The notes under the pieces: generated by a model
What the model saw: only the letters and a program-made list of their open reading frames with translations
What the model was told of the DNA's origin: nothing
The model's database searches: none
Translations under genes and position numbers: made by a program
Shown here: piece by piece, positions 17,144 through 39,071 of the stretch
Numbering within the stretch: position 1 is the stretch's first letter
How the letters are laid out: each line of letters opens with the position of its first letter
From: a virus
IMG/VR virus record: IMGVR_UViG_3300028364_000067
Location: 1 to 40,312 of that record
Direction: 5' to 3' (one strand)
Length of the DNA stretch: 40,312 nt

Positions 17144-18271
17144 ATGGCTGATTTTTCTTTGACCACGTTATTCGTGGCTCCTGTGGGGCAGACTGCTCTC
17201 CCTAGTTCAGGATCAACCCAAGACCTCACCGCAGGTCAAATAGGTATTTTCAACAATGTGTATGCTACTACAGCTGCAGGGGGTATGGCAACAACTCCTT
17301 ATTTCTATGTAGCTCAAGGGCGTGAAAACACTTACTTACAAGGATCTAAAAGATCTGATAAAGTAGCAGGTGCTTTAAATAGTGCTTTGCGTAAAAATGT
17401 AACTGAATGGTACAAAGTAACTGGTTCTGCCGTTGCTTCTAATCAGATTATTGAAATTTCTAACTGGTCAGTATTACCAGGACAAGATGTATCTTTAACT
17501 CTTCGTGGACATTCAAGTTATGTTGACACACTTTATTACAATGGATTTACACGTACAGTAACTGTAAAAGGTGCTTGTTTAGATTGTGGTGCAGACCCTT
17601 GTGTAGAGGTAGATGTTCCTCAATTAATTGATGATATTATTGAAAAATTAAATGCAAGTGTTCCTGGAAATAACCCAGACAACATTTCTTTTAGTACATT
17701 TTATACGTATCAAAGAATTGGTGATGACCAAGCTGCAGTTTTACGTATTGAAGGAAAACCTTTAACTAAGTATGGTGTTCCTTGTGACATTGCAGCAAAT
17801 TCTCATGAATACGATAGATTTTGGTTTAGAGCTTTCCCTTTTATAGGCCCTGACACAACTTCTGATTTTTACGTTGACGATTCTTGTAGTATTATAGCAG
17901 AGACAGCAATTATACAAGAAGCTGGTTACGCCAGTGGAACGTATGAAGAAATTAAGCAACTTGAAATTAACTATTATAGTTACCAAGCAGGTTACTTAAA
18001 GCATTTATACAGAATGGCGGGTTACAACCAAAATTTTGAGCCAATTGCTGTACCAGGAACTGTATATGATACTTATTATGTTAAGTTCATTGATTACGAT
18101 GCTTCACAAAGAACATGGGGTGATTACATTCCTGTTGACAGTATGATTATTATAGCTGTACCTACTGGTAGTGCGTTTGCTACTGCCTTAGAAGCTGTTT
18201 TAGTCGCTGGATTAGGGGCAGTTACTGCGGATAACACAGTTTACACTACTACAACTACAACTACTGTTTAA
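17144..18271 (+). CDS. Virion structural protein with C-terminal threonine tract
   Basis: A 375-residue beta-rich protein (MADFSLTTLFVAPVGQTALP). Segments WYKVTGSAVASNQIIEISNW, DVSLTLRGHSSYVDTLYYNG and TVKGACLDCGADPCVEVDV are typical of a late structural protein; the CxxCxxxxC cluster may bind metal. The last residues are seven threonines then Val, encoded by ACT/ACA codons, so the protein stops inside a poly-Thr linker. It is probably a head-fibre base or connector ring component; not assigned further. A strong terminator follows 23 bases after the stop. Confidence 0.55.
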   Translation: MADFSLTTLFVAPVGQTALPSSGSTQDLTAGQIGIFNNVYATTAAGGMATTPYFYVAQGRENTYLQGSKRSDKVAGALNSALRKNVTEWYKVTGSAVASNQIIEISNWSVLPGQDVSLTLRGHSSYVDTLYYNGFTRTVTVKGACLDCGADPCVEVDVPQLIDDIIEKLNASVPGNNPDNISFSTFYTYQRIGDDQAAVLRIEGKPLTKYGVPCDIAANSHEYDRFWFRAFPFIGPDTTSDFYVDDSCSIIAETAIIQEAGYASGTYEEIKQLEINYYSYQAGYLKHLYRMAGYNQNFEPIAVPGTVYDTYYVKFIDYDASQRTWGDYIPVDSMIIIAVPTGSAFATALEAVLVAGLGAVTADNTVYTTTTTTTV

Positions 18272-22024: not shown

Positions 22025-22774
22025 ATGACAGTAGAAATACAATTAACAACCGTAGGAATAGATTCAACAACTTTTGATTTATACTCAAATGTAGATGGAT
22101 TTACAATTCCTTTTGTAGGTGGACTAAGTGCTGCAATAATGTTAGCAGGTTATACTTCTACAGTTGTTCCCGACTTTACAACAATTATTAGAGTACAATC
22201 TACAGGAACAAAATGTTCTAACTTTATTGATATTATTTTAGCAACAACTACAACTACGACTACAACTTTAACTCCAACTACAACTACGACTACAACCATA
22301 GAACCTACAACAACTACAACAACAACAACGTTAGAGCCAACAACAACAACAACCACAACCACCACTTTGGAGCCAACAACAACAACCACAACCACCACTT
22401 TGGAGCCAACAACAACAACTAGTAGTACCACAATAGCACCAACAACTACCACTACTACTACAAACGGTAGTAAACTTATTCTTGATAACAATAGTAATAG
22501 TAATACAATAGAAAATGTAACCGGTACCAATTGGACTATTTCAATAGGTACTCCTACTGGTCCAGGAGTAACAACTTTCGGGGAGCAAGAAGGTACAACT
22601 GGAGCAGTTAGTGTAGAAATTACAGTGATTGTTAATGGTTGTATTTCTATGTATAGAAACGGAGTGTTAATTGAATCTATAAATGTTACTTCTACAGGAG
22701 TATATACATTCTCTGCAATACCAATAACTGCATCAGATAATATTATATTTGTGCTTAATGATGGATCTTGTTAA
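22025..22774 (+). CDS. Poly-threonine linker fibre protein
   Basis: A 249-residue protein. Residues 1-72 repeat the module of the previous gene (MTVEIQLTTVGIDSTTFDLY ... KCSNFIDI). Residues about 74-146 are almost pure threonine broken by LTP, IEP, LEP and IAP. The last 100 residues are a beta-rich domain (NGSKLILDNN; VSVEITVIVNGCISMYRNGV; YTFSAIPITASDNIIFVLND), resembling an Ig-like or lectin-like tip. A stalk-and-tip fibre is inferred. The Thr stalk is a candidate for O-glycosylation by the host. Confidence 0.65.
   Translation: MTVEIQLTTVGIDSTTFDLYSNVDGFTIPFVGGLSAAIMLAGYTSTVVPDFTTIIRVQSTGTKCSNFIDIILATTTTTTTTLTPTTTTTTTIEPTTTTTTTTLEPTTTTTTTTTLEPTTTTTTTTLEPTTTTSSTTIAPTTTTTTTNGSKLILDNNSNSNTIENVTGTNWTISIGTPTGPGVTTFGEQEGTTGAVSVEITVIVNGCISMYRNGVLIESINVTSTGVYTFSAIPITASDNIIFVLNDGSC
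22244..22462 (+). repeat. ACN (threonine) codon array with internal LEP repeats
   Basis: About 73 codons of mostly ACA/ACT/ACC. Within it a unit of roughly 39 bases encoding (T)n-LEP is tandemly repeated nearly identically (around 22333-22410). Such an array can expand, contract or recombine in frame. Confidence 0.85.
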
Positions 22775-25298: not shown

Positions 25299-28200
25299 AT
25301 GGCTGAAGAAAAAAACCCAAAAAGCAATATTAACCAACAGTATAATAGTGCTAATGCGGGACTAAATCAAGATAATAGTTTAAGTCAAGTTAAAAAAGGC
25401 TTACTAACTTATGCATTAAATGCTGCAGTCGAAAACTATGATAGCAACTCTGTAAATTACCAAAATGAGCCTGGCAATACGGGATGTATTGTGTTTCCTA
25501 AAGGATATTCTTTAGTTGGCAATCACTTTATTCCTGAAAGAAGCAAACAAATTTATATGTTAGCTAACCCTGCAATTGGTGCAAGCCAAATAGGGTACAT
25601 GGATAACAACGATTGTGTATATCGTGTGTTAGCTTGTTCCAATTGTTTAAATTTTGATATTAATCACCCAATACATAAAATGGTACACAAAGTAACAAAC
25701 TTTGGTGTAGAGATTTATTGGGCAGATAACAATGGAAGACGTTACTTAAACATAGACGACATTCCTAAACCAATTCGTTACGGTAGTACATTATGTGATC
25801 CTGTTTATGTTGATGATGATTGTGTAATAGATTGTGCTAAAATAAAATTACAACCTGAGTTTACTATACCTGTTTTAAAAGTAATAGGTTCAGTTTCTGG
25901 AGGAGAGAACACTTCAGGGACTGTACAATTTGCAGCTCAGTATGCAGATGCTCAAAGTAATCCCTATACATCTTACTACGGAGTAACAAACCCAACACCT
26001 ATTGCAGACACAAACATTGTATCTGTAAACTTTAACTATCCTGTAGGAAAGTCTATTGTTGTAGACATACAAAATTTAGATGTTACAGGTAAATACCAGT
26101 ATTTTAACTTAGCTGTAATAAAAACAGTTAACGGTGTATCTACACCTCAGCTTGTAGGTACGTATTTTATTGATCGCGACAATAAACAAATAACTTACAC
26201 AGGGCAAAATAAAACTGAAATTACTTTATCTATAAAAGATATTTTTGAAAAGTTTGTGTATTATGATAATGCTGACCATGTAACAACTGTTCAAGACATT
26301 CTTGTTTGGAACGGTATGACTATTAGTAAGCGTATAAATTATCAAAAAATTGCAAGTCAAATTAAACTTGAGTGGCAATCTTTTAGATTACCTGCAGGTG
26401 AAGACTATTCTGATGTAGAAAATGCAACAAACTTTAGAGGTTATTTAAGAGACGAAGTATATGCTTTTGAAATACAATGGTTACTAACAAATGGAAAAGA
26501 AACAGATGGTTTCCATATTCCTGGTCGCGTTAAAAATTCTTTTGATATTGCTTCTCCTAACATTTATCCGAATAATCCTGATTTTATTGGAAACGTAGAT
26601 GAAGGTAAAGATTATGCTTCTTATTGGAAAATATATAATACAGCTACAGTTATAGGAACTAATCCTGAATATGTTGCAGAAAAAGATTATAAAGGTGCAT
26701 ACCAACACGGAGAAATGGCTTATTGGGAGTCTACAGAGGAGTATCCATGTAACAAAGATATATGGGGTGACTTGTCTGGAAAAAAAATAAGACATCACAA
26801 ATTTCCGGATGTTGCAATAAGTCCAATATTTGAAAGTCCTTCTTTTCCAGGAAAAAATAGTTTAGTAAGTGAAAATAGAGCAATTTACCCGTTAGGTGTA
26901 AAAATTGATATAGCCACTATTAAAAGTCTTATTGCAAACTCAAACCTTTCACAAGAAGAAAAAAACGATATAGTTGGATTTAAAATTCTAAGAGGAGATA
27001 GAGGTGTAAATAAATCTATTGTAGCTAAAGGCATGCTACGAAATGTTAATAAATACAAAAGAAAAAAACAAGATTACTTTTATCCAAACTATCCTTATAA
27101 TGATGTTGGAGAAGATCCTTTTATTAATTCTGTAAACAATGCTTGGGCACAAGAATGTAAATCTTATATAGTAGATGTTTTTAATTTGCCTTTACAACCA
27201 GACGGAGAAAGGTACGTTAAACTAGATATTGTTAGTTGTGAGAACAACAAAAAAGCTACAGAAAAAATAACAAAGGAAGGAAAAACAAAAGTTTGTTCTA
27301 TGACGCTTCCTAGGTTTTCTAGTGTAGGAACATATAATAAAATGGGAGATACACCTCTTATTTCTCAATTTGCAGGAGAAAATAATGTTAATGCAGATAA
27401 TTATAATAATTATTTATATAAGCCTTTAAGCTCAACAGATGCTATTGTGTATTTTGCTAGTTACGATATATGGAGAGTGTATTGGAGAGATTCTGGGGCA
27501 TTCCCTTTTGCTGGAGCCCGTGCGGGTTGGGAAGATTTAATAATAAATAACGCACAAGCGCAAGAGTGGCTGAGAGATAGGTCTACCCAAAACAATAGTG
27601 ACAATATAATAGTTAGAACTCCTGTAGGGTCAAAACCATATTGTTTAGGTGAAAATCAATGTGAAAGAAGCGGAAAACAAAAATTTAAATATGAATTAAT
27701 TACTACAATTCTTGCTGATGATTGTAGTGAAGAAACTCCTTTACCTAAAATTAAAGACAGCGAAGATTTGTTTTATAGACAAATACTTAACTCACCTGAA
27801 ACTTCTTTTGGTCAACCATTTTTAGGAAACATTCTTAAATTAGAAAGTGTTATGTATGGTGGTGGAAAGGCACACTTTGTTGAAGTAAAAAATAATGCAA
27901 AATATAGGCTATTAACTGAAGAAGCACAAAACGATGCTTTAGCCGCCTCAACTAAACTTGGTTCAATAACAAGTAGTTTTAATGCTACAGCAATGTTTAC
28001 TGCTTATCAAGCTTATTTACAGATTTATATAAATGGAATTACAAGAAAAAATTATTCATACTCTTTCAACAGTATTGCTGATTATAATTATTCTGTGCCT
28101 GTGCCTGATAATTTTGGAATAAAACAAAGAACTCTTGACATAAAAAAATATTTAATTCCGGGTGTACAAAATGTTGGAGAAAAAGATATTAATATTAATA

Positions 28201-30656
28201 ATTATAATAGAGAAACTTCTGTTTATTTAAGAACAAATGGAAGTAATGAAGATGATTTAGTTACGACAGCTCCTTTACCTTTACCAAGCACTAGTGTAAA
28301 TATGGCTATTTTAGGTTTAGAAGGTAAATCACGATTTACTATAGGAGAGAGTGGTGTTTGTTCTACACCAGAATTAGAACAAGATATTCAAGTGGTTTCT
28401 TATTACGCTTCATTAAAAAATACTTTTATTAATCAATGGGGACAAATATATTCTTATCAATCTATTGGAACAGGTTTCACTGTAATTTTTGGTAAAGAAG
28501 AATTAAACAAAGGAAACACTATATTTGGTGGAGATACTTTTATTGGAAAATTTGCTTATAAAACTAAAGTACCTTTCTTTATTGATAACAAAGTTAATGC
28601 TCCTGATGATAGTGATATATTTTATGATGAACTAGGCAATATTGGTTATCCTAAATATTGGCATTCAGCACGCTCTATTCTTAGCTCATACAGAAACACA
28701 GATCCAAGTGTTAACATGGCTCCGATGTTTAATATGATTTCTTACAAGGCGCATAACTTTGATTGTAAAAATTCTCAAGAGTTATCGCCATTAACAGCAG
28801 ATCCTGAAACCAATCCAGATAGAACGTTTTACGATGGGTACATGTATCAGTTTGCATACGGTATTCCTAGTTTTTATTGTGAAAGTTCATATAATCTTGA
28901 CCTAAGAACTGCTTTTAATAATAGAGAGGGAGAGTTTTGGCCGCATGTTTCTAATGGAATACCTGATGAGTGGGTACAAGAAGACAATGTTTCTATTTTA
29001 AACGATAACACATATAATTATAATAGTACTTATTCTAAGCAAAATAAAGAATCTGTAATTACACACCTACCTGAAGATTGGAGTTTAGATTACAAAAATA
29101 TAGACTACCCATTTAGAACTGTTTATTCTGATGTACAAAACACAAATGCAGATAACAGAGTAAATAGTTGGCTAACTTACAGGGCGGCATCTTATTTTGA
29201 TTTTCCACAGAACTTTGGAGCACTTACCGCGTTAGATGGTATGAAAAATAGTGGAGTTTTGGCAAGGTTTGAAAACAAAACATTGCTGTACAACCAATTA
29301 GTCACTATAGATACAAGCAACCCATTAGCTGCGTATGTAGGAAACCCTAGACTTTTTTCTAATCCTCCAATTGATTTTGCTGAAACTGATTTAGGATATA
29401 TTGGTAGCCAACATAAATTTTTATTAAAATGTCCACAAGGTGCAATTACTGCAGATGCTAAACGTGGTCAATTTTTTTTAGTAAATGGAACAGAAGTTAC
29501 AGATTTAACTGGGTTTGGTAGTGGAATGAATAGATTTTTTACAGATCACTTAGGTTTTGAAATACTTAAATATTTTCCAAAAGTAAATATAGACAATCAT
29601 TTTAATGGAGTTGGTTTGCACGGTGTTTATGACAGTAAATATGAAAGAGTATTAATTACAAAACTTGATTATATTCCTTTGTACAAAACTATTACTTATG
29701 ATAAGGAAAGTAATAAATATTACAACACTACAGATTTAAAAAGAGAAGTGTTTTTATCTGACCAAGAGTTTTTCTGTAATAAATCTTTTACAGTGTCGTT
29801 TAATTTTAATACTAAAAGTTGGGTAAGTTTTCATAGTTACTTACCAAACTATTATGTAGGGGAAAATAAATACTTTTATTCCGGGTTAAATTATTGTCCA
29901 AATGATTTTGATGTTTTTGTAGGAAGTGTTATTAATGTATTTCCAACTACAACAACTTCTACTACTAGATTTATACAAATTACAACAACAACGTCAACCA
30001 CAACACAAATTATTGATTGTGATTTAGAAGCAATTGTTGAAGCAACTGAATGTAATATAGAAGGAACTGCTACTATTATTTATATAGAAAAAGTTTGTGA
30101 AAGACCTTTTAATATGAGAACTTTTGAATTAATTACAGGATATACTTTAGTTACGCCTTTAACAGATATAGACTCTACAGGAAGCGCAACAAGTGCATGT
30201 AAAAATAAAAATTACTATTCTTTGTATTTTGGAAATGAAAACTATACTCCTAAAATTTTATTGTGTAATGCACTTCAAATACAATTAGGGTCTACACTTT
30301 ATGAAAATAATAATACTTTAGACTGTTCTGTAATTCCTAATGGATGGTATTTTACAGATGAAAGTTCTTCAGATAAAAAAGTATTTCAAGTTATTGACGG
30401 AGTTATTGTAAGCATTTTAATTTGTAATGACGGAGAAGTAATTACAACAACTTCTACAACTACAATGGTAGGAACGTCATATTGTTTTACAGGAATATAC
30501 ACTAACCCAGATCCTATAAATCCTTTAGGTGGAGTTGTAAGATTTATAAATGTATTTGGAGTTTTAGAAATTATAGAAAATATTTGGGCAGAAGATTCTG
30601 TAACAATATTAGCTTTAAGTATAGATTTTACTTTAGGAGTAGTAATATGTAATTAA
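25299..30656 (+). CDS. Giant tail protein, muzzle-type, with Thr-linked C-terminal domains
   Basis: A 1785-residue protein and the largest gene here. The body (about 1-1548) starts AEEKNPKSNINQQYNSANAG and contains FPKGYSLVGNHFIPERSKQI, YPLGVKIDIATIKSLI and, near its end, WVSFHSYLPNYYVGENKYFY. These features are those of the large crAss-like tail (muzzle) protein that closes the tail tip. At about 1549 the sequence switches to a Thr tract, a Cys-rich beta domain (about 1572-1714), a second Thr tract and a final domain ending in VVICN. The usual C-terminal part seems to lie in the next gene, suggesting a split. Confidence 0.7.
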   Translation: MAEEKNPKSNINQQYNSANAGLNQDNSLSQVKKGLLTYALNAAVENYDSNSVNYQNEPGNTGCIVFPKGYSLVGNHFIPERSKQIYMLANPAIGASQIGYMDNNDCVYRVLACSNCLNFDINHPIHKMVHKVTNFGVEIYWADNNGRRYLNIDDIPKPIRYGSTLCDPVYVDDDCVIDCAKIKLQPEFTIPVLKVIGSVSGGENTSGTVQFAAQYADAQSNPYTSYYGVTNPTPIADTNIVSVNFNYPVGKSIVVDIQNLDVTGKYQYFNLAVIKTVNGVSTPQLVGTYFIDRDNKQITYTGQNKTEITLSIKDIFEKFVYYDNADHVTTVQDILVWNGMTISKRINYQKIASQIKLEWQSFRLPAGEDYSDVENATNFRGYLRDEVYAFEIQWLLTNGKETDGFHIPGRVKNSFDIASPNIYPNNPDFIGNVDEGKDYASYWKIYNTATVIGTNPEYVAEKDYKGAYQHGEMAYWESTEEYPCNKDIWGDLSGKKIRHHKFPDVAISPIFESPSFPGKNSLVSENRAIYPLGVKIDIATIKSLIANSNLSQEEKNDIVGFKILRGDRGVNKSIVAKGMLRNVNKYKRKKQDYFYPNYPYNDVGEDPFINSVNNAWAQECKSYIVDVFNLPLQPDGERYVKLDIVSCENNKKATEKITKEGKTKVCSMTLPRFSSVGTYNKMGDTPLISQFAGENNVNADNYNNYLYKPLSSTDAIVYFASYDIWRVYWRDSGAFPFAGARAGWEDLIINNAQAQEWLRDRSTQNNSDNIIVRTPVGSKPYCLGENQCERSGKQKFKYELITTILADDCSEETPLPKIKDSEDLFYRQILNSPETSFGQPFLGNILKLESVMYGGGKAHFVEVKNNAKYRLLTEEAQNDALAASTKLGSITSSFNATAMFTAYQAYLQIYINGITRKNYSYSFNSIADYNYSVPVPDNFGIKQRTLDIKKYLIPGVQNVGEKDININNYNRETSVYLRTNGSNEDDLVTTAPLPLPSTSVNMAILGLEGKSRFTIGESGVCSTPELEQDIQVVSYYASLKNTFINQWGQIYSYQSIGTGFTVIFGKEELNKGNTIFGGDTFIGKFAYKTKVPFFIDNKVNAPDDSDIFYDELGNIGYPKYWHSARSILSSYRNTDPSVNMAPMFNMISYKAHNFDCKNSQELSPLTADPETNPDRTFYDGYMYQFAYGIPSFYCESSYNLDLRTAFNNREGEFWPHVSNGIPDEWVQEDNVSILNDNTYNYNSTYSKQNKESVITHLPEDWSLDYKNIDYPFRTVYSDVQNTNADNRVNSWLTYRAASYFDFPQNFGALTALDGMKNSGVLARFENKTLLYNQLVTIDTSNPLAAYVGNPRLFSNPPIDFAETDLGYIGSQHKFLLKCPQGAITADAKRGQFFLVNGTEVTDLTGFGSGMNRFFTDHLGFEILKYFPKVNIDNHFNGVGLHGVYDSKYERVLITKLDYIPLYKTITYDKESNKYYNTTDLKREVFLSDQEFFCNKSFTVSFNFNTKSWVSFHSYLPNYYVGENKYFYSGLNYCPNDFDVFVGSVINVFPTTTTSTTRFIQITTTTSTTTQIIDCDLEAIVEATECNIEGTATIIYIEKVCERPFNMRTFELITGYTLVTPLTDIDSTGSATSACKNKNYYSLYFGNENYTPKILLCNALQIQLGSTLYENNNTLDCSVIPNGWYFTDESSSDKKVFQVIDGVIVSILICNDGEVITTTSTTTMVGTSYCFTGIYTNPDPINPLGGVVRFINVFGVLEIIENIWAEDSVTILALSIDFTLGVVICN

Positions 30657-30670
30657 TACTAAAATAAGAC

Positions 30671-31537
30671 ATGGCACAATTGATAACAATAAAACTTACT
30701 AGTGCAGGCTCTAACATAGGGCCTTTCACTATTGAAGATGATTTAGGTAACATTATTGCCGAAAATGTGACAAGAGAAGAACTTAAACAAGGTCTTACAT
30801 ATTCTTTTTTAAATAGTGTTATGCTGGTTGTTATCAAATCCACAGGGAGAGTTAAGCTTACAAAAACCTTTAGTATAAAAATATTTAATAAGTTAGAATA
30901 TGCTGGCCTTGTTTTTTCAGATAAAGGAAATGCATGCTTGTGGAGACATGTAGATAGCCCTTTAATCTATAATTCTTTCTACGGGAACATCGAACCTTAT
31001 ATTATTGAATATCCTTTTAGTTACAAATACCATGATGAAATTTTACAAAATGTACAAGATTATACAAAAGTTTACAAATACATTGATACAGAAGACGGAG
31101 TATTTGCGGATTATTCTAAACATGAACTAGACGATAGTTGGTTTAACAAAGCTATTTTGTATAATGGACAACAAAGCTCCGGCATACTAACATTAGTGGC
31201 CAAGCCTTTAAGAAATCTTAGTGCTGTAATGTCTTACCCTAAATTATTAGAAAACACTAAAGAAATTCTATATACTAAAAATGATAATTTTTATCAATAT
31301 AATACTTTTTGGTCAGTAACTAAAGACGCTACTAAACTTCAGTTTGTTAAAGATTGTTCCAGTCTTTCAATAGATAAAGTTATTAATCAAAGTAATATGG
31401 ATTACTTTAAGAAAAGTTACAAAAAAGCTACACTTAGAGCAAAGGATTTAAAAATTAGACATATATTAGATAACAGAGGAGATATTAATTTAGTGAGTCA
31501 ATTTATAATTGCTCCGTCACAAAATTCTTTTAAATAA
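30671..31537 (+). CDS. Docking module fused to a detached muzzle C-terminal domain
   Basis: A 288-residue protein. Residues about 1-70 (MAQLITIKLTSAGSNIGPFT ... MLVVIKSTG) are a third copy of the N-terminal module of the 20736 and 22025 genes. From about residue 86 on, LWRHVDSPLIYNSFYGNIEP, YPFSYKYHDEILQNVQDYTK, YNGQQSSG and SLSIDKVINQSNMDY, then KATLRAKDLKIRHILDNRGD and SQFIIAPSQ, resemble what I recall as the C-terminal end of crAss-like giant tail proteins. It therefore probably completes the muzzle as a separate chain. The TAATG overlap joins it to the cargo gene. Confidence 0.55.
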   Translation: MAQLITIKLTSAGSNIGPFTIEDDLGNIIAENVTREELKQGLTYSFLNSVMLVVIKSTGRVKLTKTFSIKIFNKLEYAGLVFSDKGNACLWRHVDSPLIYNSFYGNIEPYIIEYPFSYKYHDEILQNVQDYTKVYKYIDTEDGVFADYSKHELDDSWFNKAILYNGQQSSGILTLVAKPLRNLSAVMSYPKLLENTKEILYTKNDNFYQYNTFWSVTKDATKLQFVKDCSSLSIDKVINQSNMDYFKKSYKKATLRAKDLKIRHILDNRGDINLVSQFIIAPSQNSFK

Positions 31538-33366
31538 TGGGTTGGTTAGACGAATACGAAAAAGCACAGAATGGTAGAACAGACTATAATGAACGTTCAC
31601 AAGCAATTGTGCAACGTGATAATATTCCTGCACAAAAAGAGTATTCTGTAAAACCTCTTTCTCCAGAGTATGTCGCTGAAATGAAAAGACAACAACAGAT
31701 TGCAAAGTCTGGGGAAATACGTCAACACGAGCCACAAGGTTGGCTAGACAAAACTATAGATGTTGCTACAAATCCTATGACAGCTTTTGAGTATGCTAGT
31801 AAAAGTCAACGTATTCCTGATAATTTTGCAGCAGGCCCACGAAATCCATTTGATTATGCTATAGATGTTATCAATCCTTTTCAATATGCGTTAGATACTA
31901 AAAACTTAGTAGAAGGTGCGGCTACAGGAGATTTAAGTCAAATAGGTGAAGGAGCTTTAGGTGTGCTTCCTTTAGGGTTAGAAGCTAAAAACATTAGTAG
32001 AGGACTAAAAAAATTAAAAAAGACTCCTGAATTTAAATCAGAAATTGATTGGGGTAAGTGGAATAAGGAAATACCTTCTAATAAGAAATTAGTAAATGAA
32101 TACAACTCTATTGAAGAAATATCCAAGGCGAACAATAGTTGGATGAAAAATCCAGATGGTTCTATATTTACAGGAGATCCTGAATTATTTATACAATCAC
32201 AAAGCGATGCTTGGGTAAATGCTTATGGCTCAAAAGGAATGGATAGTGTTAATGAGGTTTATAGGGGTGTTGGACCTGCAAATAACAATCCTGATTTTTC
32301 AAAAGGGTTTAAAGAAGGTGATAAAGCAATATTTACAGCTGATAAAACTTTAGCAAAAAACTATGAATGGGGAGTTTTAGACATTGTAAAGAAAAATAAA
32401 GATAATTTTTTAACACCAAATTCAAATCAAAATTCTTCTGGTATTTATAAATTAGGGTTCCCTAAAGGCAAGCAAATAAACTATAATGCTATGGGAGATG
32501 ACTGGTCAGGAGTAAATTTAGCTAAAGGTAACAATAAAATTAATTTAGAATGGCAACTAAATAAACAAAAGGAACATTTAAATAAATTATTGGACACAGG
32601 CTTAAATGAGGATGGTATAGCTTTTTCACAAGAACGTATAGAAATGTTAAAAAATTACATTAATAATTTCGATAATATGGGCAATGATTCAGTTGCTTTT
32701 AATGAGATGCGTAAAAATATAGGAGATGTTGTATCTACAGACGATATTGCAAGTTATATTGAAAACACTGATTTAAACAATGTTACTCTTAATAATATTG
32801 TTGACGGAGGACTTGGAAACGTCACTATTGTAAACAATAAAAAAGGTAATTATTTAAAATCATTAAAAGGTAATAATGGTAATTGGGATTTGAATAATCC
32901 TAATATACACAAAGCATTAGTACCTGCGGCAATAGGGACAGCATCATTGCTTTCAGATAAAAATGAAGATAGATGGCTTGATAAATTTGAACATGGTGGA
33001 GTGATTAAAGATGATGAGGGTTATTGGAATCCTAATAATCATGGAAAGGTTGTTGAAATAAATTCTAACGATATTACAATGCGTGGTGTTAATCAACCAC
33101 TTATAGGTATTAGTGATACTGGGGACACTAAAATGATGTACCCAGGAGAAGACTATAAGTTTAAAGGTAATAAGGTTACAGAGTACCCTATGGCACAAAA
33201 GGGAAAAACTATTAAATTAGATGAAAAATCTAAGACAGGAAAAAATAACAAATTGATTATTAATCCTATCTATAAAAAAGCAAAAAATGGAGCATCCGTT
33301 AAGAATAAGAAAAAATCAACTAACTTTACCACACCCAACTGGTTAGATAAATACACAGCATCATGA
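31537..33366 (+). CDS. Virion cargo protein with internal ADP-ribosyltransferase-like domain
   Basis: A 609-residue protein. The flanks are virion type: N-terminal GWLDEYEKAQNGR (2-14) and a C-terminal WLDKFEHGG (480-488) followed by KVVEINSNDITMRGVNQPLI and GISDTGDTKMMYPGEDY, a motif set typical of crAss-like structural or cargo proteins. Between them, about 170-457, is a domain with VYRG (241-244), AIFTADKTLAKNYE (264-277), NNIVDGG (419-425) and GNNGNWDLNNPNI (445-457). This matches the layout of ADP-ribosyltransferases found in phage polyvalent proteins. If active it would enter the host with the DNA and modify a target, like T4 Alt. The catalytic Glu is not identified with certainty. It overlaps its neighbours on both sides (TAATG, ATGA). 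Confidence 0.65.
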   Translation: MGWLDEYEKAQNGRTDYNERSQAIVQRDNIPAQKEYSVKPLSPEYVAEMKRQQQIAKSGEIRQHEPQGWLDKTIDVATNPMTAFEYASKSQRIPDNFAAGPRNPFDYAIDVINPFQYALDTKNLVEGAATGDLSQIGEGALGVLPLGLEAKNISRGLKKLKKTPEFKSEIDWGKWNKEIPSNKKLVNEYNSIEEISKANNSWMKNPDGSIFTGDPELFIQSQSDAWVNAYGSKGMDSVNEVYRGVGPANNNPDFSKGFKEGDKAIFTADKTLAKNYEWGVLDIVKKNKDNFLTPNSNQNSSGIYKLGFPKGKQINYNAMGDDWSGVNLAKGNNKINLEWQLNKQKEHLNKLLDTGLNEDGIAFSQERIEMLKNYINNFDNMGNDSVAFNEMRKNIGDVVSTDDIASYIENTDLNNVTLNNIVDGGLGNVTIVNNKKGNYLKSLKGNNGNWDLNNPNIHKALVPAAIGTASLLSDKNEDRWLDKFEHGGVIKDDEGYWNPNNHGKVVEINSNDITMRGVNQPLIGISDTGDTKMMYPGEDYKFKGNKVTEYPMAQKGKTIKLDEKSKTGKNNKLIINPIYKKAKNGASVKNKKKSTNFTTPNWLDKYTAS

Positions 33367-36266
33367 GAAAGCAAATGTTTAAAATAGCAGGAATTAAGAA
33401 CGAGAAAGAGTTTTACAAAAAATTCCCGACGGAAAAAGCTTTTATGGCTAAGCATGGTAAAACTTTAAAGGCACAAGTGGGAATAACCACTGGTTTTAAT
33501 TTAAATGAACTTATGAGTATTCCTGACTACAATACAGGGATTGGAATGGTAAATGATTCAAATTTACAAGCTAAGTTTCCTGGATTAGGCCCTACACCGT
33601 TTCAGCAAAAAAACTCAAACATGCTGGCTAATATGCAATCTGCTACAGATGCGTCAAATTTGGGAAATAGTGCTGGATTTATGGATAACATAGGTGGAGC
33701 TGCAGGACTTGCCAACTCAGGTATGGATATTGCTAATGGCTTGTTTGCAATTGAAGGACAAAAAAATGCTGTAGACTCTTCTTTGCAAGGAAGAAAAGTA
33801 AGTGACGTTTCTTTAATGGCGGCTAAAACTGAAGATGTAGATGCAAGAAGACTTATGACTGAACAAAGTGAAAGAAATTACAACCAAAGAATGCGCGCAG
33901 TAAATGGAGAAGAATTGTTTCCTATTAACGGCGTAGGCACTAACATATTGTCGTCTAAAAATGGAAGCACTGTCAGAGCACAATATGGCTACACTCCGTT
34001 TAATGCCAACCCAAGTGCTATGTCAATAGGTGCAGCTACTTCTGGTTTAGCAAGACAAGTTATGAATAATGATGCAGGTTCACAAATTGGTGGTGGAATT
34101 GGTAAAATAGGTGGAACAGCATTAGGAGGTCCAATAGGAGGTATGGTTGGAGAATTTGCTGGAAAACTTATAGGAGGAACTATTGATAGAAGCGATGAAA
34201 AAATAAAAAAGAATAATGCTTTTACAGAACGTAATATGATGCAAATGGGAAATATTGCTATGGCAGGTGGTATTCATCGGGCTAACAACTCTTTTATGCA
34301 GAATGGTGGCACAATGATGCAAAGTGGTGGAGAAGTTACGCCTGCGTGGGGTGGAGGAATATCACCTATATCTTACAATCCATATACTAAAGGAGGAGAA
34401 ACAAACATGATTAATGGAAATACACATGCTAAAGGTGGTGTTGGTTTACATTATAATAATGCAGAAAATGGTTCTACAGGAATGACTAAAATTGAAGCTG
34501 AAGGGTCTGAACCTATTATGGATACAGAACAAGGAATGACTATTTTTGGTAAACTACTTATTAATGAAAAAACTGCAAGAATGATTGGAGACCCAAGCTC
34601 TAAGGGTAGAAAGTTTAGAACATACATTGCTGACCAAGCTAAGAAAGAAGATAAAATTAATAAAAGACTTTCTTCTGTTGAAAAACAAGAATTGCTTTAT
34701 GAGGGAACAAAAGTAGGGACTTTAGAATCAAAAACTAAAGATCTTATTAAAATGGGGAACGATATGAAGTTAAAGTCTATTGCAGAGCACAAAGAAAGAG
34801 CCGCAGTTGCACAAGAGTCTTTAAATATTGTAGCAGAAGAAACTGGAATTCCTGTAGAAAAATTGGCAGGTAATGCAAACAAATTAGAAGCTTATCTTAA
34901 ACGCAAAAGCAAAACAAATCATGCTAAAAATGGAAAAACAATGTATGCTAAAAATGGGAAAACATTGTATGCTGAAACTGGAATAACAACAACATCAAAT
35001 TCTACAACTACTGTCCCTATAACTACTTTTAAATCTAAAAAAGAAGCTTTGGCTAATGGTTTTGAAGAAAAAGATGGACAACTTGTTAAATTAATAAACC
35101 CAGGAACAGAAGGAAGAGAAGCTAGTAGAAAGTTAATTAAAAGTGGTGTTCAAGGAACTGCAGGAACTTTTGATGCTTCTGGTATTCAACTAAAGTCTAC
35201 AGGTATTACTGACAATGAGGTTTGGCGTACTAATAAAGATGGTGTTCAACAAAAATATAAAACCAAGGAAGATTATATTGCAGCAGCAGATGCGTGGAGA
35301 GAATCACAAAGAAATAAATTAATTAGTGTAGAAGAACAAAAATTTACAGAAGGTATTAAAGCAACAGACGATGTTTATAAAAATATTGCTGCAATTAAAG
35401 GAACAGATCCGGAGTACGCTTATGCTAATGTAAAAAATGATCCTTTCAACGCTATACCTTATGCTAACATGCTGATGCCTTTGTTAAGAGGAACAGATGC
35501 AGAAGATTTAAATGCAAATCAATTGTATGGAGAAATGTTTGCTTTGTCAAACAACCAATTAGAACCAGTACAAGGTCAATCATATCGTCCGGAGCTAGAT
35601 GTTCCTTATGACATATCAATGCAAGATCAACTAAATAGAAATACATCTGTATTTAGAGGGGCGCAAAGAATGTCACAAGGCAATCCTGAGCAATTAGCTA
35701 TGTTACAAGCACAAGAATATGAAGCTAACCAACCCGTTTACGCAGAACAGTTTAGACAAAATCAAGCAATGAAAGACCGTGTGTACAGTGGAAACCGTGC
35801 AACACTTAACGATGCTCAACTAAGAAACATTCAGTTAAACGACCAACAATATGTTAGACAAGCTCAAGCAAGATCTAATACTAAAGAAGCAAATCAATTA
35901 GCTCTTAATTCAATGTCTGATAAATATTCTAGAAATCAATTAGAACAAAGAACTTTACAGACTTATGAAAATTTATATAACTATAGATTTGGAAAAGATT
36001 TTAGAACAGATAACTTAAATAATTTAGTTGACTTTCAGGGAAGAATAGCTAATGCAGGTCAAAATTTTTCACCTACACCTATGAGTTTTGCAGAAATTGA
36101 TCAACAAAGGAGAATGGTTAATGTAGGTCAAAACTTTTCAAATACACCTATGACTTCAGAAGAAATTGCTGAACAAAGAAGAGTAGCTGCGGGCGGTACT
36201 TCAGCTACACCTATGACTGCGGCACAATTTGCTGAACAAAGAAGAATAGCTAATGCATTTAGATAA
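33363..36266 (+). CDS. Large crAss-like virion cargo protein
   Basis: A 967-residue protein; start ATG at 33363 overlaps the previous stop (an in-frame ATG at 33375, MFKIAGIKNEKEFYKKFPTE, is also likely). Around residues 240-280 a Gly-rich hydrophobic segment (GGTALGGPIGGMVGEFAGKL) could cross or disturb membranes. Residues about 345-440 (NGNTHAKGGVGLHYNN; EGSEPIMDTEQGMTIFGKLL) match a conserved crAss-like cargo module. A (M/L)YAKNGKT repeat lies near 519-540, and three ~22-residue repeats ending in E/QQRR lie at about 893-967. It is probably ejected into the host envelope with the genome. Confidence 0.65.
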   Translation: MRKQMFKIAGIKNEKEFYKKFPTEKAFMAKHGKTLKAQVGITTGFNLNELMSIPDYNTGIGMVNDSNLQAKFPGLGPTPFQQKNSNMLANMQSATDASNLGNSAGFMDNIGGAAGLANSGMDIANGLFAIEGQKNAVDSSLQGRKVSDVSLMAAKTEDVDARRLMTEQSERNYNQRMRAVNGEELFPINGVGTNILSSKNGSTVRAQYGYTPFNANPSAMSIGAATSGLARQVMNNDAGSQIGGGIGKIGGTALGGPIGGMVGEFAGKLIGGTIDRSDEKIKKNNAFTERNMMQMGNIAMAGGIHRANNSFMQNGGTMMQSGGEVTPAWGGGISPISYNPYTKGGETNMINGNTHAKGGVGLHYNNAENGSTGMTKIEAEGSEPIMDTEQGMTIFGKLLINEKTARMIGDPSSKGRKFRTYIADQAKKEDKINKRLSSVEKQELLYEGTKVGTLESKTKDLIKMGNDMKLKSIAEHKERAAVAQESLNIVAEETGIPVEKLAGNANKLEAYLKRKSKTNHAKNGKTMYAKNGKTLYAETGITTTSNSTTTVPITTFKSKKEALANGFEEKDGQLVKLINPGTEGREASRKLIKSGVQGTAGTFDASGIQLKSTGITDNEVWRTNKDGVQQKYKTKEDYIAAADAWRESQRNKLISVEEQKFTEGIKATDDVYKNIAAIKGTDPEYAYANVKNDPFNAIPYANMLMPLLRGTDAEDLNANQLYGEMFALSNNQLEPVQGQSYRPELDVPYDISMQDQLNRNTSVFRGAQRMSQGNPEQLAMLQAQEYEANQPVYAEQFRQNQAMKDRVYSGNRATLNDAQLRNIQLNDQQYVRQAQARSNTKEANQLALNSMSDKYSRNQLEQRTLQTYENLYNYRFGKDFRTDNLNNLVDFQGRIANAGQNFSPTPMSFAEIDQQRRMVNVGQNFSNTPMTSEEIAEQRRVAAGGTSATPMTAAQFAEQRRIANAFR

Positions 36267-36365: not shown

Positions 36366-39071
36366 ATGGCAAGTTTTACAGATAGAGCACCAACGTTTAA
36401 TCCTTACGTTCAACAACAACCTGTTGAAGCTATGGTTAATGTTGGTTTGCAAATGCAACAACGATATGACCAAAATTTACAAAAAATACAATCAACAATA
36501 GAAAATATTGCTGGGTTAGATGTTGTAAGAGATGTTGATAAACGTTACTTAGAAAGTAGACTTACAAACGTAGGTAATAAATTAACCTCGTTTGCCGCAG
36601 CAGATTTTTCTCAAAGTGAGATGGCGAACTCTGTAGGAGGTATGGTAGGTATTATTGGAAAAGATGCTAATGTTAGAAATGCAGTATCATCTACAAATAG
36701 GTATAAAAAAGCTTTAGCAAATAAAGAGCAATATACAAAAGAAGGTAAAAACGGCGAATCAAATGATTGGTTGTTTCGTATTAATACTAATAAATGGTTA
36801 AACTCTGAAGATTTATCTGCATCTTATAATGGTGATTATCGTAAATTTAAAGATTACAGTAAACCAGCACAAGAAATTATTAAAAATTTAGTAAAAGACT
36901 CTGTAACTAATGATGTTGCTTATAGTTATGATAATAAAGGAAATATTACAAGCATACATGATGCAATAACTAGAAAAAAAATAGAAGGAATAACACCTGA
37001 AAAAATACAAAGAGCTTTAAAAGCTGGATTATCTGCTGAAGATTGGCAACAAATGCAACTTGATGGTAGATACAAGTATTCAAACGTTAGTAATGAAGAT
37101 TTTATGGAAAACATTACATCTTCTTACGACAAAAATATAACAAACCTAAAAGAATCTCAAGATAATATTAAAAGCTTAATTATTTCTGCAAGCAGTGCTT
37201 CAGAAAAACAAAGGCTTACTAGCAGACTAAAATCATTAGAAGGTTTAATTCAAGACACAGAAAATGATTATAAAAAAACTGAAGAAAGTTTTTTAGATGG
37301 AAATTTAGAAGGAACAAAAGCACAACTATTTATAGCAGATTGGATGAGCAATATGTCTAATGGATTTTCTAGTTCAATAGTTTCAACAACTTTTCATGAA
37401 AGTCCTTATGCAAACAGACAATATCAACGTGATAAAATGGCTCAAGATGACAGACATCATAGCGAAAATTTAGATGTGGCTCGTGAAAGACTTTTTATAG
37501 CAAAAGAAAAAAAGAAGAAAGAAAACCCGTCTCCGGATCCTGAAAACCCAACAAAGTCTCCATTTGGACCAGTACCTTTTCCTACTGATAGTAAAAAACT
37601 TACTAATATAAAAGTAATAGCAAAAGAATACGAGGCTGTAGAAAACATGAAAAATAGAGATGAGATTTCTAGGAACTCAATGATTAATAAGTATGGTTGG
37701 ACAGATAATGAATTTCAAGAAAAAATAATTTTATTTGAAAAAAATAAAGCTAAGTTAACTTATAGCCAACAAAAAGATATAAAACAATATCTTACAGATT
37801 ATTCTGAAACTTTTACAAAAGAAAGAACTTTAAATACTCATCAAAAAACTGCAGAATTTTTGTACCAAGATAATATTAACCCTGATGAAAATTTACCTGA
37901 AGTTTTAAAAAACAAAACTATTGATTTAAATTTTGAAAATGAATTTGGAAAAAGTTCTACCGTGTCTTATGACTATATTCAAGCCGCAAGAGAGTTTCTT
38001 AATTTTGAAAAAAACTATCAAACTACAAAATATAATAAAGACTCTTATTATATTTCATCTCCTGAAGGAGGAAGGTTTAATGTAGCAGACACAGGTGAAA
38101 AAGTATATCTTGATGATAAGGCTTTAGCAGAATTACCTCCTGAAAAACAAGCCATGTATAACTTATGGAAAAAAAGTACACAAGGCTATACAACTGAGTT
38201 AGAAGGAAGACAACTTGCAGCTATAAAAGAAGTAGCAAGAAATGTTAAAACAAACCTTGAAACTATAGAAAACAATAGAAACAAATATGTAAGTGAACAA
38301 TTAAAGGAAACTCATGTTATTATGCAACCTAATTCTTATAGTATATTACTTACAGACGATAACGTTATGGCGGGCATGAAAACAGTTTTGGGCGATTTAG
38401 GTATTAGAGCCTCTGAAGACAAACTTGAAGGAACAGATGTTAGTCAAAAAAATATTGTAGAAATGGCATCAAAGTTAGAGACTGTTTCTATTGTAGGGGA
38501 AGACAAAAAAACATTAAACTTGTCAGGAAAGGACGGTACATTTCTTTCAATTCCTTTAGATAACCAAACAAACTTGTCTGTTTTTGGAGATGAATATACT
38601 GAAAGTCCGTCAGAAAGAATGTTTAATCAAAGAATTATACCTATGTTGCATGGAACTCAAGCTCCTTTAGTTGAGATGTGGGATGAACGTACAGAAAGTG
38701 TTGTTGTAGGCAAAAATCCACAAACATTTTGGACAACTAACATTAATTCTACATTTAACTCTACGTTCGCTACAGGAGGTTTAAACAGTGTTTTAGATTT
38801 TACAAATGTAGACGCATATAATGTTACTGGAGATGTTGTTAGTGATTCTAAAAATGGTGAAATAGTTACATTAAAAATCAATGTTCGAGACCCTATTACT
38901 GATGAAGTTGTTTTAGAAGATTACGAATTAGCAAAAGACATAGAAAAGTCTGCTTTAGACGCACATTTAAAATGGTTTACAGATGAAAAAATTTTTAAAA
39001 TTTTATACCCTTATGGAAATTGGGAGGAAAAAAAGGAAGAATTAGAGAACGCTAAAAAAATTATAAAATAA
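36366..39071 (+). CDS. Large helical virion cargo protein
   Basis: A 901-residue protein. The start MASFTDRAPTFNPYVQQQPV followed by EAMVNVGLQMQQRYDQNLQK and LDVVRDVDKRYLESRLTNVG is the signature of a conserved crAss-like cargo protein. Most of the chain is helical with coiled coils (EENDYKKTEESFL-type regions; KMAQDDRHHSENLDVARERL). A Pro-rich disordered patch (SPDPENPTKSPFGPVPFPTD) lies near residue 390-410. There is no catalytic motif. It is expected to be stored in the tail or head and delivered into the cell. It ends 1 base before the next ATG. Confidence 0.65.
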   Translation: MASFTDRAPTFNPYVQQQPVEAMVNVGLQMQQRYDQNLQKIQSTIENIAGLDVVRDVDKRYLESRLTNVGNKLTSFAAADFSQSEMANSVGGMVGIIGKDANVRNAVSSTNRYKKALANKEQYTKEGKNGESNDWLFRINTNKWLNSEDLSASYNGDYRKFKDYSKPAQEIIKNLVKDSVTNDVAYSYDNKGNITSIHDAITRKKIEGITPEKIQRALKAGLSAEDWQQMQLDGRYKYSNVSNEDFMENITSSYDKNITNLKESQDNIKSLIISASSASEKQRLTSRLKSLEGLIQDTENDYKKTEESFLDGNLEGTKAQLFIADWMSNMSNGFSSSIVSTTFHESPYANRQYQRDKMAQDDRHHSENLDVARERLFIAKEKKKKENPSPDPENPTKSPFGPVPFPTDSKKLTNIKVIAKEYEAVENMKNRDEISRNSMINKYGWTDNEFQEKIILFEKNKAKLTYSQQKDIKQYLTDYSETFTKERTLNTHQKTAEFLYQDNINPDENLPEVLKNKTIDLNFENEFGKSSTVSYDYIQAAREFLNFEKNYQTTKYNKDSYYISSPEGGRFNVADTGEKVYLDDKALAELPPEKQAMYNLWKKSTQGYTTELEGRQLAAIKEVARNVKTNLETIENNRNKYVSEQLKETHVIMQPNSYSILLTDDNVMAGMKTVLGDLGIRASEDKLEGTDVSQKNIVEMASKLETVSIVGEDKKTLNLSGKDGTFLSIPLDNQTNLSVFGDEYTESPSERMFNQRIIPMLHGTQAPLVEMWDERTESVVVGKNPQTFWTTNINSTFNSTFATGGLNSVLDFTNVDAYNVTGDVVSDSKNGEIVTLKINVRDPITDEVVLEDYELAKDIEKSALDAHLKWFTDEKIFKILYPYGNWEEKKEELENAKKIIK

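What the first reader, a model, noticed from the sequence alone, without database searches (positions are those of the whole stretch)
31537..33366. ADP-ribosyltransferase-like domain inserted in a virion cargo protein
Residues about 170-457 carry VYRG, an FTADKTLAKNY strand-helix, NNIVDGG and GNNGNWDLNNPNI, in the order typical of ADP-ribosyltransferases of phage polyvalent proteins. The flanks (WLDEY start; NSNDITMRGV and MMYPGEDY end) are crAss-like virion sequence. This suggests the flanks serve as a delivery chassis with an exchangeable effector between them, so the phage would inject a host-modifying enzyme at once, by analogy with T4 Alt. I am not aware of this being described for this gene position.
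Basis: partly seen in the sequence, partly recalled or inferred. Interest (0 to 1): 0.75.

Follow-up and report, generated by a model that had tools for sequence, protein, structure and literature searches.

The report
Swappable-effector virion protein carrying ADP-ribosyltransferase
A crAss-related environmental phage has a gene, placed between its tail-muzzle gene and its cargo genes, that carries a predicted host-modifying enzyme (an ADP-ribosyltransferase) joined to a constant tag, and in over a hundred related phages the same place holds the same tag joined to very different domains, as if the phages swap the protein they bring into the cell.

Summary
The ORF (31537-33366, 609 aa) and all quoted motifs are real. 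Residues 167-467 form a confidently predicted fold (pLDDT 87.8); its significant viral-structure matches include annotated ART-PolyVal proteins, two from crAss-like phages (PDB search: nothing significant). Pfam misses it, but the same cap module precedes bona fide ART-PolyVal domains in 27 of 31 relatives. The window belongs to a divergent clade with conserved R243, T/S267 and D423 instead of H-Y-D. Synteny is fixed: muzzle, muzzle-C-like gene, slot gene, two cargo-like genes. In 52 unique slots found through the upstream gene alone, 49 carry the same ~65-aa beta tag, slot length runs 0.6-6.2 kb, and none carries an ART. Slot contents include transglycosylase, lysozyme, amidase, M91-like peptidase and ART domains. 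Phages with 97-99% identical upstream genes can have nearly unrelated slot proteins. A WLDKY-type motif is about 45 times denser in slot proteins than elsewhere. So 'constant chassis, exchangeable effector' is well supported; catalysis, virion packaging and injection are inferred, not shown. Virion ARTs and phage polymorphic toxins are known; this chassis, gene position and ART clade appear undescribed.

The parts
25299..30656 (+). muzzle (tail stabilization) protein, 1785 aa
   Evidence: phrog_37948 virion structural protein 6e-100; present upstream in 77 of 80 syntenic loci
30671..31537 (+). m288: 288-aa protein resembling the C-terminal end of crAss muzzle proteins; upstream border of the slot
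   Evidence: phrog_15100 positions 1585-1780 of 1783, E 7e-8; fused to the muzzle in L020, L021, L024, L063 and others
31537..33366 (+). slot gene: chassis protein with ADP-ribosyltransferase-like effector, 609 aa
31543..31557 (+). WLDKY-type motif, copy 1 (WLDEY, residues 3-7)
31714..32028 (+). pre-effector region, residues 60-164
   Evidence: 26-45% identical to slot proteins L058 (followed by ART-PolyVal), L106, L119, L125 and L107 (followed by other domains)
32035..32241 (+). helical cap module KSEIDWGKWN...WMKNPDGS...LFIQ, residues 167-235
   Evidence: shared by ART subtypes a and b in about 60 loci; four helices, pLDDT 92-98
32248..32907 (+). ADP-ribosyltransferase-like core, residues 238-457
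   Evidence: AlphaFold model; Foldseek to ART-PolyVal proteins E 1e-5 to 1e-4; motif order as in relatives matching PF18760
32263..32265 (+). R243, candidate NAD-binding arginine on strand 1
   Evidence: 25 of 27 R, 1 H, 1 K
32335..32337 (+). T267, candidate second catalytic position on strand 2
   Evidence: T 17, S 5 of 27
32803..32805 (+). D423, candidate acidic residue directly after strand 5
   Evidence: D 26, E 1 of 27
32857..32907 (+). C-terminal ART signature KSLKGNNGNWDLNNPNI
   Evidence: same signature ends the Pfam ART-PolyVal match in L072
32974..32988 (+). WLDKY-type motif, copy 2 (WLDKF, residues 480-484)
33001..33192 (+). chassis tag, about 65-aa all-beta domain, residues 489-552
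   Evidence: in 49 of 52 slots found through m288; AlphaFold core pLDDT 92-96
33340..33354 (+). WLDKY-type motif, copy 3 at the C-terminus (WLDKY, residues 602-606)
   Evidence: 110 of 131 slot proteins end this way
33363..36266 (+). cargo-1-like protein, 967 aa; downstream border of the slot
   Evidence: homologues downstream of the slot in 80 loci; best profile match to crAss001 gp45 falls on its portal-bound region but is weak, P 0.004
36366..39071 (+). next cargo-like protein, 901 aa, conserved in synteny
   Evidence: 63 loci; Leptolyngbya phage homologue hhalign E 4e-22

Best explanation
The gene is one occupant of an effector slot that lies between the muzzle gene and the cargo genes of a crAss-related phage lineage. 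The constant parts (a ~65-aa beta tag, repeated WLDKY motifs, in some members a pre-effector segment) are the chassis; the middle is swapped between phages. Here the middle is a divergent ADP-ribosyltransferase with a helical cap, probably using R243, T267 and D423. Most likely the protein is made late with the virion proteins, is built into the particle near the tail/portal cargo zone through the tag and motifs, leaves the particle with the other cargo at infection, and transfers ADP-ribose from NAD+ to a host molecule to favour takeover or block defence. Status and likelihood of each step: ORF, synteny and exchange shown by sequence (~0.95); ART fold from a predicted structure plus homology (~0.92); virion incorporation inferred from gene position (~0.8); ejection into the cytoplasm inferred by analogy with crAss001 cargo (~0.65); catalytic activity inferred from conserved residues and purifying selection (~0.65); target unknown.
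For: AlphaFold model pLDDT 87.8, pTM 0.85 with an ART-like strand order. Foldseek against viral models at E<=1e-3, prob ~1: ART-PolyVal-like proteins of crAss-like phages cr130_1 (1.7e-5) and cr271_1 (1.1e-4) and a PolyVal ADP-ribosyltransferase (3.3e-5, TM 0.63 on the target). Same cap module followed by Pfam ART-PolyVal in 27/31 subtype-a relatives, best 6e-17, and in gut Crassvirales cr271_1 and cr85_1 near the C-terminal end of a giant cargo protein. R243, T/S267, D423 conserved; dN/dS 0.17-0.35 in the ART region. Fixed synteny in 80 loci. 49/52 m288-found slots carry the tag. Slot domains: SLT, ART-PolyVal, Phage_lysozyme2, Peptidase_M91, Amidase_2, LysM. Pairs with 97-99% identical m288 whose slot proteins align over only 17-29%. 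WLDKY-type motif 2.67 vs 0.06 per 1000 aa. 26 ART loci where the ART gene follows a muzzle or m288 gene.
Against: No Pfam, PHROG or PDB sequence hit to an ART for the window protein or any of its 27 clade members. With cap and C-terminal signature removed, the profile match to subtype a is not significant (P 0.011). PDB structure search: top hits are PARP domains but E 0.2-1 and TM about 0.17. H and Y of polyvalent ARTs are replaced. No proteomics or cryo-EM of this lineage. Many identified slot domains are wall hydrolases, so the slot need not deliver to the cytoplasm in every phage.
Confidence: 0.62

Rival explanations
1. The domain has the ART fold but is no longer an enzyme. It is a structural or binding module of a virion protein (tail plug, channel component or adhesin), kept for its shape.
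For: H and Y of polyvalent ARTs are lost in the window clade (H to R, Y to F) and no invariant glutamate is seen; Pfam does not recognise the clade.
Against: A different polar set (R 25/27, T/S 22/27, D/E 27/27) is conserved at the matching strands; the occupant is swapped for known enzymes in relatives, which argues against a fixed structural role.
Confidence: 0.17
2. The enzyme is active but acts on something other than a host protein: it destroys NAD+ or modifies nucleic acid or NAD-derived signals to defeat abortive-infection or phage-competition systems, or acts in the envelope during entry.
For: Viral ARTs span many targets (PMC9503650); many recognised slot domains are peptidoglycan hydrolases, so the slot product may work at the envelope.
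Against: NAD+ is scarce outside the cytoplasm (general knowledge); no NADase- or DarT-type family is detected by Pfam.
Confidence: 0.15
3. The region is not an ART. The fold call is a by-product of the cap module and the NPNI tail, which are shared for other reasons.
For: The core-only profile comparison is not significant; the PDB structure search is not significant.
Against: Structure matches to annotated ART-PolyVal proteins span about 250-340 alignment columns at E about 1e-5; motif order, strand placement and the ART C-terminal signature agree.
Confidence: 0.06

Closest known systems
ART-PolyVal (PF18760) domains of phage polyvalent proteins (Iyer et al. 2017, PMC5512222)
   Same: Predicted fold, cap module and C-terminal signature; encoded among virion genes; predicted to be packaged and injected.
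   Different: The window clade has R-T-D-like conserved residues instead of H-Y-D, escapes the Pfam model, and sits on a small single-effector chassis rather than in a large multi-domain polyvalent protein.
T4 Alt (virion-packaged ADP-ribosyltransferase)
   Same: Proposed logic: an enzyme carried in the particle acts on the host at once.
   Different: No sequence relation was detected; Alt is a myovirus head protein, here it would be tail/portal cargo of a crAss-type podovirus; activity and packaging are shown for Alt only.
MuF polymorphic toxins of temperate phages (PMC12226406)
   Same: Constant virion-associated part joined to a variable toxic or enzymatic part.
   Different: No MuF domain; constant tag usually C-terminal of the effector; no gene fits between effector and next virion gene, so no adjacent immunity gene; no sign of lysogeny seen.
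crAss001 cargo proteins gp45-gp50 (PMC10172136) and the ART-bearing gp47-like cargo of crAss-like phages cr271_1 and cr85_1
   Same: Same genome region downstream of the muzzle; predicted ejected cargo; in cr271_1 and cr85_1 also with an ART-PolyVal-type domain.
   Different: crAss001 has no gene between muzzle gp44 and cargo gp45; in cr271_1 and cr85_1 the ART is near the C-terminal end of a giant protein, not an exchangeable stand-alone slot.

Membership tests
ADP-ribosyltransferase superfamily | ART fold | tested here: met
   Confident model and Foldseek to ART-PolyVal proteins E 1e-5 to 1e-4. By prediction only; PDB hits are PARPs but not significant.
ADP-ribosyltransferase superfamily | conserved catalytic set (R-S-E or H-Y-E/D) | tested here: inconclusive
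   R243 25/27, T/S267 22/27, D/E423 27/27: R-[TS]-[DE]-like, but assignment is by strand order only; 3D proximity could not be measured.
ADP-ribosyltransferase superfamily | transfer of ADP-ribose from NAD+ | not testable with these tools
   Needs biochemistry.
ART-PolyVal (PF18760) | match to the Pfam model | tested here: not met
   Window and its 27-member clade: no match; subtype-a relatives 27/31 match.
ART-PolyVal (PF18760) | H on strand 1, Y on strand 2, D on strand 5 (PMC5512222) | tested here: not met
   R, F/T and D in the window clade.
Polyvalent proteins | several different effector domains in one polypeptide | tested here: not met
   Only one effector is recognised in the window protein; some relatives (L049, L070, 2400 aa and more) may be polyvalent.
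MuF polymorphic toxins | MuF domain | tested here: not met
   No Pfam match to MuF.
MuF polymorphic toxins | constant part plus variable effector | tested here: met
   Constant tag with 76 whole-length families among 131 slot proteins, 59 of them singletons; exchange between close relatives.
MuF polymorphic toxins | adjacent immunity gene | tested here: not met
   Slot gene overlaps the next virion gene by 4 bases.
Crassvirales-type phage | TerL, portal, capsid and muzzle of the crAss type | tested here: met
   phrog_6681, 6547, 11589 and 37948; TerL and portal align with crAss001 at 22-23%. Formal taxonomy not tested.
T4 Alt-like injected effector | present in the virion and delivered into the cell | not testable with these tools
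   No proteomics or infection data for this lineage.

The most novel reading that the evidence does not exclude
The tag plus repeated WLDKY motifs form a portable loading signal with which crAss-related phages build a polymorphic effector platform into their particle: any domain placed on the chassis (ART, lysin, peptidase, unknown) is carried and delivered, and the lineage exchanges these domains rapidly.
Probability: 0.4. Interest if true: 0.8.

Novelty: new variant of a known kind. Interest (0 to 1): 0.63.

Why it matters
If right, a widespread environmental phage lineage (442 IMG/VR stretches encode the upstream border gene) carries an effector locus with fixed borders that can be mined by position for new phage-to-host effectors, many with no known family. 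It would extend virion-borne ADP-ribosylation to a defined gene position in crAss-type phages, and the tag and WLDKY motif would give a testable signal for loading a protein into a phage particle.

Tried and rejected
Pfam, PHROG and PDB sequence searches with the window protein alone gave nothing for ART. Core-only profile comparison with subtype a was not significant. The idea that the tag is homologous to the portal-bound domain of gp45 was dropped: the tag model has no significant PDB match (weak cupin-like hits). The 967-aa neighbour as a gp45 homologue is only weakly supported. A tag search in 84,980 bacterial and archaeal species genomes confirmed no relative, so no host or prophage could be named. 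L106 appears by eye to hold a metallopeptidase motif (HENKH) and L119 an acetyltransferase-like part; Pfam confirmed neither. A first, heavier synteny script timed out and was replaced.

Full report
1. What is there. The ORF 31537-33366 codes for 609 aa. It overlaps the stop of the gene before it by one base and the start of the gene after it by four, so it belongs to the structural operon. The phage is a distant, environmental relative of crAss-like phages: large terminase, portal and capsid match phrog_6681, 6547 and 11589 and the muzzle matches phrog_37948; terminase and portal are 22-23% identical to those of crAss001; the capsid protein is nearest to Leptolyngbya phage Lbo-JY46 and the Flavobacterium Fpv phages. 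The record is a virus record of 40.3 kb, probably a fragment.

2. Is the middle an ART? Direct searches with the protein fail. Two IMG/VR scans brought in about 80 loci that share the module KSEIDWGKWNKEIP...WMKN.DGS.F.GTPEQFVQ. Behind this module come two kinds of domain. Subtype a (YHGS..., GxYTTP...) matches Pfam ART-PolyVal in 27 of 31 members, best E 6e-17. Subtype b, to which the window belongs, matches no ART model but ends in the same KS..GN.G.FD..NPNI signature, the start of which in L072 lies inside the Pfam ART-PolyVal match. The AlphaFold model of residues 167-467 from 27 sequences is confident (pLDDT 87.8, pTM 0.85), with strands at the YRG motif, the FTAD motif, then two more, and two around the NNIVDGG motif. 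Foldseek finds, at E about 1e-4 or better with probability 1, proteins named ART-PolyVal-like or PolyVal ADP-ribosyltransferase, two of them from crAss-like phages cr130_1 and cr271_1. Against the PDB the first 21 hits are all PARP catalytic domains, but with E 0.2-1 and TM about 0.17, so this is only a hint. With cap and tail signature removed, the profile-profile match between b and a is not significant. I judge ART fold about 0.92. Conserved candidates are R243 (25/27), T/S267 (22/27) and D423 (26/27, E once), the last directly after strand 5; the Iyer et al. paper describes H-Y-D on strands 1, 2 and 5 for polyvalent ARTs (PMC5512222). In subtype a they are H 31/31, Y 28/31 and a mostly conserved E (21/31). 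dN/dS of 0.17-0.35 in related pairs shows purifying selection.

3. Is it a chassis with an exchangeable middle? Gene order muzzle, m288, slot, 967-aa protein is conserved in 80 loci, 77 of them with a recognisable muzzle upstream and 63 with the 901-aa protein downstream. In other relatives m288 is fused to the muzzle and the ART gene starts 3 bases after it; altogether 26 ART loci have the gene after a muzzle or m288 gene. To avoid circular counting I searched with the upstream gene m288 alone: of 52 unique slots bounded by m288 and the 967-aa homologue, 49 carry the tag, none carries an ART, and slot length runs from 619 to 6219 bp. In 67 mostly tag-found slots, 6 carry the ART module (window, L029, L055, L058, L072, L082). 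Pfam finds in slot proteins SLT transglycosylase, phage tail lysozyme, amidase, LysM, Peptidase_M91 and ART-PolyVal; PHROGs adds endolysin and 'internal virion protein with endolysin domain'. The 131 slot proteins form 76 whole-length families, 59 of them single. Among phages whose m288 is 97-99% identical, slot proteins can align over only 17-29% of their length (L107/L135, L156/L251). The N-terminal segment 60-164 of the window protein recurs before ART-PolyVal (L058) and before other domains (L106, L119, L125, L107), so there is a conserved part on both sides in some members.

4. The tag and the motif. The tag is about 65 aa, all beta, predicted with high confidence in its core, with no significant match to a solved structure. 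A WLDKY-type motif occurs three times in the window protein and in no other window ORF of 120 aa or more; over all loci it occurs 2.67 times per 1000 aa in slot proteins against 0.06 elsewhere, and 110 of 131 slot proteins end with it. These are candidates for docking or loading signals; that is inference.

5. Where else the ART sits. In a sister set with the same portal and capsid families, the ART gene lies between portal and capsid (L002, L038). In gut Crassvirales cr271_1 and cr85_1 the cap and an ART-PolyVal-type domain lie near the C-terminal end of the giant gp47-like cargo protein. The ART has thus been placed on several virion proteins of crAss-related phages.

6. Mechanism. crAss001 stores gp45, gp46 and RNA polymerase proteins in capsid and tail and is thought to eject them ahead of DNA (PMC10172136). 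A slot protein encoded between muzzle and cargo 1 is most likely handled likewise. The ART would act in the cytoplasm, where NAD+ is. Virion loading, ejection, activity and target are not shown.

7. Novelty. Virion-borne ARTs (T4 Alt, polyvalent proteins) and phage polymorphic toxins (MuF) are known (PMC5512222, PMC9503650, PMC12226406). The crAss papers and the structural atlas that I looked into do not mention ADP-ribosylation or such a slot where searched; subscription papers could not be searched. I therefore call it a new variant of a known kind.

8. Limits. Only the best 80 loci of each scan were seen; counts depend on how loci were found; the structural conclusions rest on predictions whose coordinates I could not superpose myself.

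Noticed in passing
window 31543, 32974, 33340 and slot proteins of more than 100 loci: WLDKY-type short motif, often followed by GG, repeated 2-3 times per slot protein and at the extreme C-terminus of 110 of 131; nearly absent from muzzle, m288 and cargo proteins.
   Followed up: partly
window 30671-31537: A muzzle C-terminal-like domain is a separate gene here but fused to the muzzle in many relatives (L020, L021, L024, L063).
   Followed up: partly
L002, L038 and similar loci: The same cap plus ART gene lies between portal and major capsid protein in a sister phage group.
   Followed up: yes
L172 (cr85_1), L173 (cr271_1): Gut Crassvirales carry a cap and ART-PolyVal-type domain near the C-terminal end of the gp47-like giant cargo protein, deposited as RNA polymerase subunit or hypothetical protein.
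   Followed up: yes
L058:8809-9492 and several slots: Endonuclease-like genes or domains (NUMOD, GIY-YIG; an HNH-like ORF by eye in L058) lie in or next to the slot, a possible driver of exchange by homing.
   Followed up: no
L014 (Leptolyngbya phage Lbo-JY46) 7992-9479: A named cyanobacterial phage has the tag joined to a transglycosylase-like domain directly after its presumed muzzle gene, so the chassis is not limited to Bacteroidota phages.
   Followed up: partly
window 22025-22774 and 17144-18271: Poly-threonine stretches in proteins encoded near the tail genes.
   Followed up: no
17 of 67 slot proteins: N-terminal zinc-ribbon-like CTCGHSWNKSDSSKKD...CHxCG module of unknown role.
   Followed up: no
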